Assembly: GCF_003014555.1 (NCBI RefSeq)
Contig: NZ_PYGE01000001.1
Location: forward strand, 124,001 to 188,000
Direction of reading: 5' to 3'
Source: Haloactinopolyspora alba
Lineage (GTDB): Bacteria > Actinomycetota > Actinomycetes > Jiangellales > Jiangellaceae
Length of the DNA: 64,000 nt
Shown: one piece after another, positions 21,950 to 24,124 of the stretch
Layout: the number at the start of each line of letters is the position of its first letter
How positions within the stretch are numbered: the stretch's first letter is position 1
The notes under the pieces: model-generated
Database searches by the model: none
What the model was told of the DNA's origin: nothing
What the model saw: the letters and a program-made list of their open reading frames with translations, nothing else
Program-made: the position numbers and the translations under genes

Positions 21950-22336
21950 CTAGGGCGTGTCTCCCAACTCAGCGGCGTCGACGGGTGGTCCCTCGGCGGA
22001 CGCCACCATGGTATCGACGAGAGCGTCGATCCTGGCGGCCGCGGCCGTCAGCTGCTCGAGCCGGCGCGCGATGCGCTCTTGCTGTCCACGTACCTCATCG
22101 ATCATGCCGGCGCTGATGCGCCCCGTCGATTCGCAGCGCAGCAGCAGCGCGATGGAGCTGCTGGGCAAACCGGCCGAGTAGAGGCACTGGATCAGCCGCA
22201 CCCGGTCCGGCGCGTCCGTGGCGTAGACACGCTGCCCCGTCGGCGTGCGGTCGGCTGCGAGCAGTCGCTGCTCCTCGTAGTAGCGCAGCGACCGGATGCT
22301 CACACCCGTGGCGCGGGAGAGCTCTCCGATCCTCAT
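21950..22336 (-). CDS. MerR-family transcriptional regulator
   Basis: The 128-residue protein has the MerR winged helix (MRIGELSRATGVSIRSLRYY, EEQRLLAADRTPTGQRVY) and a coiled dimerisation helix. It lacks a cysteine-rich metal site, so the signal is probably organic or redox. The last residues (G-D-T-P) and the stop are encoded by the transposon's terminal inverted repeat, so the natural C-terminus has been replaced. It is divergent from the SDR gene, which it probably controls. Confidence 0.87.
   Translation of the reverse strand: MRIGELSRATGVSIRSLRYYEEQRLLAADRTPTGQRVYATDAPDRVRLIQCLYSAGLPSSSIALLLRCESTGRISAGMIDEVRGQQERIARRLEQLTAAAARIDALVDTMVASAEGPPVDAAELGDTP
21951..21964 (+). repeat. Left terminal inverted repeat with TA
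   Basis: The sequence TAGGGCGTGTCTCC is repeated exactly, in inverted orientation, at 24111-24124. TA is the expected target duplication for IS427-group IS5 elements and GGGCGTGTCTCC the terminal repeat. It lies at the outer side of the MerR gene, 1.2 kb from the transposase. Confidence 0.7.
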
Positions 22337-22356
22337 GTTCGATCCCTTCAACGGCT

Positions 22357-22387
22357 TGCCCCTTACATGGATGTTAGGTCCTACCGT
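22357..22387 (+). promoter_or_regulatory. MerR-type promoter/operator
   Basis: The imperfect dyad CCTTACAT-GG-ATGTTAGG (22361-22378) lies between TTGCCC (22357) and TACCGT (22382). These boxes are 19 bp apart, the long spacer typical of MerR-activated promoters. The site sits in the divergent gap between MerR and SDR. Box assignment is by eye. Confidence 0.55.
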
Positions 22388-22434
22388 CGGTGAAGCCTCG
22401 CAGACGACGAGGCGAGCCGACGAGAGGATGCTCG

Positions 22435-23151
22435 ATGAGACTCAGCGGACAGACCGCTTTTGTGACCGGCGCGAACCGAGGTATCGGGCGCGCATTCGTC
22501 TCAGGATTCCTGGCGCGGGGGGCGAGCAGGGTCTATGCCGGCGTGCGCGATCCGCTGTCGATCGATGACGAGCTGAGCCACGACCCGCGCGTGGAGGTCG
22601 TGCGCCTGGAGGTCACCGATCGCGGTGAGATCACCAGGGCCGCGGACGTAGCCAGCGACACCACCGTCCTGGTCAACAACGCCGGCGCCGTGGCATTTGA
22701 GTCGCTGCTCACGGGATCTCTCGAGACGGCGCGGCGACTGTTCGACACGAACGTGTTCGGGCCGTGGGAGCTCACCCGCGCCTTCGCGCCCGCGCTCCGC
22801 GCATCGCGCGGCGCAGTCGTCAACGTACTCTCGGCCATCGCGTGGTTCTCGCCGCCGCAGAACGGCGCCTACGGGGCGACGAAGTCGGCCGCGTGGAGCC
22901 TGTCCAATGGCCTCCGGTCGGAGCTCGCTCCGGCTGGCGTCCTGGTGCAGGGCCTGCACTTCGGCGCCGTCGACACGGACTTTTCCGCCGGATTCGACAT
23001 CCCGAAGATCGCGCCGGAAGACGTCGTGCGCGCATCGCTCGACGGACTGGAGGCGGGCACGGCCGAGGTGCTCGTCGACACCGAGAGCCGGGCCGCGAAG
23101 GCCGCGCTGACGGGTGAACCCAACGGCTACGTCCGGGCCATGGCGGGCTAG
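22435..23151 (+). CDS. Short-chain dehydrogenase/reductase (SDR)
   Basis: The 238-residue classical SDR has the nucleotide-binding TGANRGIGRAF near residues 8-18, LVNNAGAV near 80, a serine in LSAIAW and the catalytic YGATK near residues 146-150. It probably reduces a small carbonyl compound using NADP(H); the substrate is unknown. A GAGAGG ribosome binding site precedes the ATG at 22435; the longer frame to 22390 is not needed. Divergence from a MerR gene suggests induction by an electrophile or xenobiotic. The stop TAG sits exactly at the degenerate inner end of the IS. Confidence 0.9.
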   Translation: MRLSGQTAFVTGANRGIGRAFVSGFLARGASRVYAGVRDPLSIDDELSHDPRVEVVRLEVTDRGEITRAADVASDTTVLVNNAGAVAFESLLTGSLETARRLFDTNVFGPWELTRAFAPALRASRGAVVNVLSAIAWFSPPQNGAYGATKSAAWSLSNGLRSELAPAGVLVQGLHFGAVDTDFSAGFDIPKIAPEDVVRASLDGLEAGTAEVLVDTESRAAKAALTGEPNGYVRAMAG

Positions 23152-23160
23152 CCACGTCTC

Positions 23161-24075
23161 CTAAATGCGTGTCCAGGTGATGCACGCTGAGAGCAGGACG
23201 GCGGCTCGGTAGGTGATGGCGAGCTTGTCGTAGCGGGTGGCCAGGGCGAAGCAGCGTTCGACGACGTTGCGGCCCTTGTAGGTCACGGCGTCCAGCGTTG
23301 GTGGGCGCCCGCCGGCGGAACCCTTGTGCTGGCGGGCGGCGGTCTCGTCCTTCTTCTGCGGGATCACCGCCTTGATGCCCCGGCCGGCAAGCATCCGGCG
23401 GGCCTTGCCGCTGGTGTACGCGCGGTCGGCGATCACGGTGTCGGGACGTGTACGTGGCCGTCCTGGTCCCAGGCGTGGGACGCGGATATCTGCCAGCACG
23501 TCGACGAGCACCGCGCCGTCGTTGCGCTGACCACCGGTGACCACGGCCGCGAGCGGGCGACCGCGCCCGTCGACCGCCGCGTGGATCTTCGTGCTCAGCC
23601 CGCCGCGCGAGCGACCGATGCCGTGACCAGCAGGCTCACGCTCACCCCCGAGCGGGCTGTGGACGAACCCGGCCGGTGTCGGCGTGTAGTTCGACGTCGC
23701 CCCCCTGTGTCCTGCTCCGGTCGCGAGGTGTTGGTGCCGTGCTGGTGGGCACGGCTGATCGTCGCGTCCACCGACACGTTCCAAACGATCTTCCCCGCCG
23801 CGTCGGCCTCCGCAAGTAGCCGCGCCAGCACGCGGTCCCAAGTCCCGTCACCGGCATACCGGCGGTGCCGCTTGCACACCGTTTTCCATGGCCCGAACTC
23901 CTCGCGCGGCAAGTCACGCCACGGGATCCCGGTCCGGTAGCGGTAGACGATCCCCTCGACCACCCGCCGGTTGTCACCAAACGGGCGCCCTCGGCCGACC
24001 GACGTTCGAGGGCAACATCGGCTCGATCTGCTCCCACTGCTCATCAGCCAGGGCCCGGTACCGCGAAGACGTCAC
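23161..24075 (-). pseudogene. IS5-family (IS427 group) transposase, frameshifted
   Basis: From the GTG at 24075 the frame reads SSRYRALADEQWEQIEPML and then stops early. One extra C near 23994-23997 shifts it, after which the next frame continues GRPFGDNRRVVEGIVYRYRT and SVDATISRAHQHGTNT. A second change of frame occurs at a run of six C (23700-23705, six G in the sense strand), which may be the programmed frameshift of this group. The last frame holds RSRGGLSTKIHAAVDG, VIADRAYTSGKARRML and NVVERCFALATRYDKLAITY with the DDE-type residues. The first shift probably inactivates the protein. Confidence 0.8.
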
Positions 24076-24110
24076 CCGGCCAGTCTGCCGCGCGCCTCAG
24101 CACCTATTAA

Positions 24111-24124
24111 GGAGACACGCCCTA
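24111..24124 (-). repeat. Right terminal inverted repeat with TA
   Basis: Reverse complement of this segment is TAGGGCGTGTCTCC, identical to the left copy at 21951-21964. It lies 36 bp beyond the transposase start, as expected for the true right end. Confidence 0.75.

What the first reader, a model, noticed from the sequence alone, without database searches (positions are those of the whole stretch)
21951..24124. IS427-type unit that appears to have captured a MerR-SDR pair
Identical 14-bp TAGGGCGTGTCTCC sequences, inverted, bound a 2.2-kb unit whose left part holds MerR and SDR genes and whose right part is an IS5-type transposase. The last codons and stop of merR are made by the terminal repeat itself. 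The IS's inner left end is degenerate next to the SDR stop. This suggests that an outer end has replaced the normal one so the passenger genes could move with the IS.
Basis: seen in the sequence. Interest (0 to 1): 0.55.

Follow-up and report, generated by a model that had tools for sequence, protein, structure and literature searches.

The report
Jumping gene that swallowed two neighbours
A common bacterial jumping gene here appears to have gained a second, more distant end that brackets two ordinary genes, and relatives of the same jumping gene bracket other genes in the same way, which suggests a recurring route by which these elements pick up and carry genes, although this particular copy looks dead.

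Summary
Identical inverted 14-bp ends lie at 21951-21964 and 24111-24124. A profile of 40 ends from relatives scores the outer left end like a genuine end (32.8; median of real ends 32.7; next site in the window 2.1), while the inner left end is degenerate. Full-length relatives do end at the inner position (93% identical copy in G017), so the plain IS is ancestral. The 21951 repeat is nevertheless not a chance leftover. The merR-SDR pair occurs without the IS elsewhere (Saccharopolyspora flava; homology spans 21978-23149). Relatives of this IS repeat the architecture with other passengers (TetR+SDR, glycolipid-binding, tautomerase, glyoxalase, RlmA-type methyltransferase, APH), each with a displaced or extra outer end. 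Two such units occur in two hosts each with different flanks. The window unit is therefore best read as a transporter-IS-like capture product of the IS5/IS427 type. Its own movement is not shown: it is a single copy, no empty site was found, and the transposase is broken (frameshifts and a 21-bp deletion).

The parts
21951..21970 (+). outer left end TAGGGCGTGTCTCCCAACTC (first 14 bp identical to the right end); flanked by C (CTAG)
   Evidence: profile score 32.8; 19 of 20 bases match the end of a relative (L239), 16 of 20 match its own right end
21950..22336 (-). merR-type regulator (passenger); last codons and stop supplied by the outer end
   Evidence: PF13411, 4.3e-15; 86% aa identity to S. 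flava homologue over residues 2-123 of the ORF
22435..23151 (+). SDR oxidoreductase (passenger), divergent from merR; stop codon lies in CTAG 23148-23151
   Evidence: PF00106, 7.4e-31; NF006119 above its cut-off; 89% aa identity in S. flava
23148..23172 (+). inner (ancestral) left end of the IS, degenerate: begins CTAGCCACGTCTCCTAAATGCGTG
   Evidence: intact CTAGGGCACGTCTCC in L007 (93%); not among the top profile sites of the window
23161..23841 (-). transposase second ORF (DDE), with an extra G in the frameshift run and a 21-bp deletion just after the conserved E
   Evidence: PF01609; NF033580, 121 bits
23595..24044 (-). transposase first ORF, 1-nt insertion near its start
   Evidence: (PF13340)
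24111..24124 (-). right end TAGGGCGTGTCTCC, flanked by T instead of C
   Evidence: score 28.1

Best explanation
The window holds the decayed remains of a transporter-IS-like unit. An IS5-family (IS427-type) element sat at the CTAG that overlaps the SDR stop codon. The outer tip of a second, related element, left beyond merR after nearly all of that element was deleted, supplied a consensus end in inverted orientation to the IS's right end. The deletion fused the tip to the 3' end of merR, giving it its last codons. With the old inner end mutated, the outer tip plus the right end define a 2.17-kb unit carrying a merR-SDR pair. Shown: genuine ends, degenerate inner end, an IS-free gene pair elsewhere, the same layout with other passengers in relatives. 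Inferred: the two-IS origin, and that the outer pair of ends was ever used together. The unit is now non-autonomous.
For: Outer tip scores as a real end. The merR-SDR pair exists without the IS in S. flava; homology spans window 21978-23149, and 2-mismatch scans of L044-L048 found no IS end. The IS alone is full length in G017 (93%, L007) and in five copies of a 78% relative in G011. Profile survey of 55 loci (52 with an IS match, 51 distinct): 33 plain copies with both ends adjacent, and 8 with one canonical end missing and an end about 0.27-2.4 kb further out with ORFs between. Passengers of those 8: window merR+SDR; L206 TetR+SDR; L198 PF06475; L199 PF14552; L216 80-aa ORF without Pfam match; L243 PF18029; L231 and L251 RlmA-type methyltransferase. 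L231 and L251 (two Streptomyces plasmids) share IS, passenger and both ends at about 79-89% identity with different flanks. G017 and G012 (different genera) share an APH gene plus the IS, and the shared block starts exactly at an extra outer end while the outer flanks differ. Both have the IS at CTAG of the APH stop codon; G511 keeps the outer tip and the APH gene without the IS.
Against: One copy only; no match to the whole unit in 22 family genomes, 393 class genomes or the plasmid collection. No empty site: left and right flanks are not neighbours in any of the 22 family genomes. Right flank is T, whereas 39 of 40 plain ends have C. Transposase broken. The inner left end is mutated, not lost, unlike in L198, L199 and L216. 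The tip matches the unit's own right end for only 16 of 20 bases, so it may come from another IS.
Confidence: 0.62

Rival explanations
1. Independent leftover: the outer tip is the relic of a separate IS insertion near merR, the IS at 23148-24124 came later, and the two ends never worked together.
For: Single copy, no empty site; plain relatives end at the inner site; the tip is closer to ends of other members than to its own right end; right flank not C.
Against: Correct inverted orientation at 2.17 kb; inner end degenerate; 7 other displaced-end units and 3 loci with extra outer ends; two units found in two hosts each with different flanks.
Confidence: 0.28
2. Ordinary composite transposon decay: two IS copies flanked merR-SDR and moved it as a composite; the left copy was then deleted, so the unit is a dead composite rather than a functional single-IS unit.
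For: Gordonia L224 holds the IS, DUF1269 and a partial second IS; Rothia shares the IS-DUF1269 block (97%). Glutamicibacter L233 has an inverted second left-type end of about 31 bp.
Against: No trace of the left IS beyond about 20 bp in the window; in L198, L199 and L216 the inner end is gone, as expected if the outer end is the one used.
Confidence: 0.08
3. Chance 14-bp match in merR coding sequence.
For: None beyond shortness.
Against: Profile score 30 bits above the next non-end site; 40 simulations reach at most 9.2; exact 14-mer only at IS ends in 5.54 Mb; MerR C-termini of relatives are not conserved.
Confidence: 0.02

Closest known systems
Transporter IS (tIS): IS derivatives carrying passenger genes, e.g. 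ISNha5 (IS1595), ISCgl1 (IS481), ISDsp3 (IS6), as named in PMC11891212, PMC7986276, PMC9330008 (passages read)
   Same: One transposase, IS-type ends, passenger genes without a role in transposition (regulators, methyltransferases and resistance genes are listed as passengers); plain close relatives exist
   Different: Those passages name other families, not IS5/IS427; the window copy has a broken transposase and no proof of unit movement
IS5 family, IS427 group (Paracoccus survey PMC3281130, passages read)
   Same: 0.83-0.87 kb there, about 0.95-1.0 kb here; 13-21 bp ends; two overlapping ORFs with a frameshift; DDE transposase; 2-bp (one 4-bp) target repeats there, TA/CTAG here
   Different: No passengers are mentioned in the passages read; group membership was not tested against ISfinder
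Transposable modules (TMos; PMC3281130 and PMC9330008, passages read)
   Same: Single IS with adjacent host DNA as cargo
   Different: TMos are described there for an IS1380-family element; here the far end is a consensus IS end
Composite transposon
   Same: Genes bracketed by IS ends
   Different: Only one IS copy; the other side is a tip of about 20 bp

Membership tests
Transporter IS (tIS) | Passenger gene(s) between the two functional-type ends of one IS | tested here: met
Transporter IS (tIS) | Close relative of a plain IS | tested here: met
   93% IS with both own ends in G017 and five 78% plain copies in G011
Transporter IS (tIS) | Moves as a unit (second copy or empty site) | tested here: inconclusive
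   Not found for the window unit; seen for the parallel units L231/L251 and, at the left edge, G017/G012
Transporter IS (tIS) | Own working transposase | tested here: not met
   frameshifts and 21-bp deletion; so the window copy is at most a decayed tIS
IS5 family, IS427 group | IS5-type DDE transposase | tested here: met
   NF033580 transpos_IS5_3, 121 bits over the 110 cut-off for the second ORF; the first ORF scores 101, below it
IS5 family, IS427 group | Two overlapping ORFs joined by frameshift; short ends; TA-containing target repeat | tested here: met
   for this group of relatives; group name recalled and compared with PMC3281130, not with ISfinder
Composite transposon | Two complete or recognisable IS copies | tested here: not met
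   one IS match in the window

The most novel reading that the evidence does not exclude
A CTAG-targeting IS427-like lineage of Actinomycetes acts as a recurrent gene-capture system. CTAG is rare in these genomes and in several cases the one used is a stop codon, so copies land at gene ends and leave neighbouring genes intact. The tip of one copy and the body of another then bracket the genes, the inner end decays, and unit transposons arise that spread enzymes and resistance-like genes between families. The window would be one of many independent captures.
Probability: 0.3. Interest if true: 0.62.

Novelty: new member of a known kind. Interest (0 to 1): 0.45.

Why it matters
IS elements with passengers are known, but how a plain IS turns into one is seldom caught in the act. 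Here one IS lineage shows plain copies, copies with an extra outer tip but both own ends (G017, L233), a copy with a damaged inner end (window), and copies whose inner end is gone (L198, L199, L216). That series makes the step from IS to gene carrier testable and predicts how such units should be annotated: several of these loci are now labelled only as IS5 transposase.

Tried and rejected
Chance match: rejected. Unit found elsewhere: not found in family, class or plasmid searches. Empty site: flanks searched separately in 22 family genomes, never adjacent. Tip taken from the genome's second IS: only 17 of 20 bases, not better than unrelated members. L205 first looked like a passenger unit, but the extra 1.4 kb holds a 415-aa ORF that I read by eye as an IS256-type transposase, i.e. 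nesting (not run against Pfam). Transposase scan of viral contigs gave one 24-residue hit. The APH region in plasmids gave one short hit. L242 shows a displaced right end with a RibD_C ORF, but no left end was found, so it is not counted. Loci were picked as best hits, not at random, so the proportion 8 of 51 is not a population frequency. Literature searches for passengers in IS5/IS427 elements or the CTAG target gave no description that I recognised in the listings and passages read; subscription papers and ISfinder were not available.

Full report
Observation. The two 14-bp arms are exact and inverted. In the whole 5.54-Mb genome the 14-mer is found only at three IS ends: the two unit ends and one end of a second IS that is 66% identical. 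I built a profile of 21 positions from 40 ends of plain relatives, leaving the window and all passenger-bearing copies out. The outer left end is the best site in the window (32.8 bits; the median of the training ends is 32.7), the right end is second (28.1) and the third is 2.1; the inner left end is not among the listed sites. 39 of the 40 training ends are preceded by C, so the target is CTAG; the window has C at the outer left and T at the right.

The IS by itself. A 93% identical copy in G017 has the ends CTAGGGCACGTCTCC and CTAGGGCGTGTCTC, and five copies of a 78% relative in G011 have both ends adjacent to the transposase. So the inner left end is the ancestral one. In the window it reads CTAGCCACGTCTCC, altered in its terminal bases. 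The transposase of the window copy has a 1-nt insertion near its start, an extra G in the frameshift run and a 21-bp deletion just after the conserved glutamate region. The copies in G017 (4-bp deletion) and G012 (right part missing) are damaged as well; the G011 copy looks intact in the same alignment.

The passenger. merR (PF13411) and the SDR (PF00106, NF006119) form a divergent pair. The nearest of the 80 loci returned is in Saccharopolyspora flava (89% aa for the SDR, 87% DNA), and homology runs from 21978 to 23149, that is from 27 bp inside the outer end to the SDR stop. Streptomyces cacaoi and Mycolicibacterium lacusdiani have the pair too. 2-mismatch scans of L044-L048 found no IS end, and the three genomes holding L044-L046 gave no match to the IS. 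The C-termini of the MerR homologues are not conserved, so the last codons GDTP-stop in the window come from the IS tip.

Parallel cases. In G017 and G012, placed by the search tool in different genera of one family, the same IS lies at the CTAG of the stop codon of an APH-type gene (PF01636). Beyond that gene is an extra outer left end. The shared block (95%) begins exactly at this end while the outer flanks differ. G511, reached through the Saccharopolyspora flava centre, has the same tip and gene without the IS, as precise loss of the IS would leave; in G778, G703, G697, G681 and G525 the gene occurs without the IS, and G778 has a degenerate form of the tip.

Survey. 33 copies are plain. 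Eight have one canonical end missing and an end further out with ORFs between: the window (2174 bp), L198 (1620, PF06475), L199 (1462, PF14552), L206 (3257, divergent TetR and SDR), L216 (1250, 80-aa ORF), L231 (2060) and L251 (2026), both with an RlmA-type methyltransferase, and L243 (1847, PF18029; its IS is internally deleted and its left end begins CAG). L170 and L233 keep both own ends and have an extra outer end; L171 has the extra end but no right end; L205 looks nested; the rest are incomplete. Only one site scoring 20 or more was left without an assigned IS (L201 at 9557). The loci were best hits of searches, so this is no population estimate. L231 and L251 are the clearest evidence that such units persist and move: two Streptomyces plasmids, IS, passenger and both ends alike at about 79-89%, flanks different.

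Interpretation. The best reading is a capture product: a full IS on one side, the tip of another on the other side, with the inner end damaged so that the outer tip is the only good left end. Whether the pair of outer ends was ever used together in this strain is not shown: there is no second copy, no empty site, and the right flank is off-consensus. The main rival, an independent leftover tip, stays at about a quarter.

Mechanistic hint. CTAG is rare here (23 in the window against 54.5 expected from trinucleotides). The CTAG used is a stop codon for the SDR, for APH, and, by annotated coordinates, for a histidine phosphatase (L214), a DUF305 protein (L216) and a recombinase (L227), i.e. 3 of the 17 annotated plasmid loci opened. 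That would let an IS sit beside intact genes, but I did not test it against random CTAG sites.

Known kinds. Reviews describe transporter IS with regulators, methyltransferases and resistance genes as passengers in other families (passages of PMC11891212, PMC7986276 and PMC9330008). The IS427 group as listed for Paracoccus has small members with mostly 2-bp repeats, and some with two overlapping ORFs (passages of PMC3281130). The name IS427 for this element is a resemblance, not tested against ISfinder.

Noticed in passing
L223:1548-3234 and L224:3242-4928: Rothia and Gordonia plasmids share a 97.5% identical block that starts exactly at the left end of an IS of this group and runs past its right end over a DUF1269 gene, ending without an IS end; Gordonia has a partial second IS beyond.
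   Followed up: partly
L233:4873-9837: Glutamicibacter plasmid: IS, MFS and ABC-F genes bracketed by two inverted left-type ends that share about 31 bp.
   Followed up: partly
L200 and L204: Two copies in G011 share flank sequences in exchanged positions, suggesting recombination between IS copies.
   Followed up: no
L242:6543-7744: Internally deleted IS with a RibD_C reductase ORF between it and a displaced right end; no left end found.
   Followed up: partly
L170:8242-8275: The extra outer end in G017 looks like a 34-bp relic: about 25 bp of the IS left end followed by ACGCCCTAG like the right tip.
   Followed up: partly
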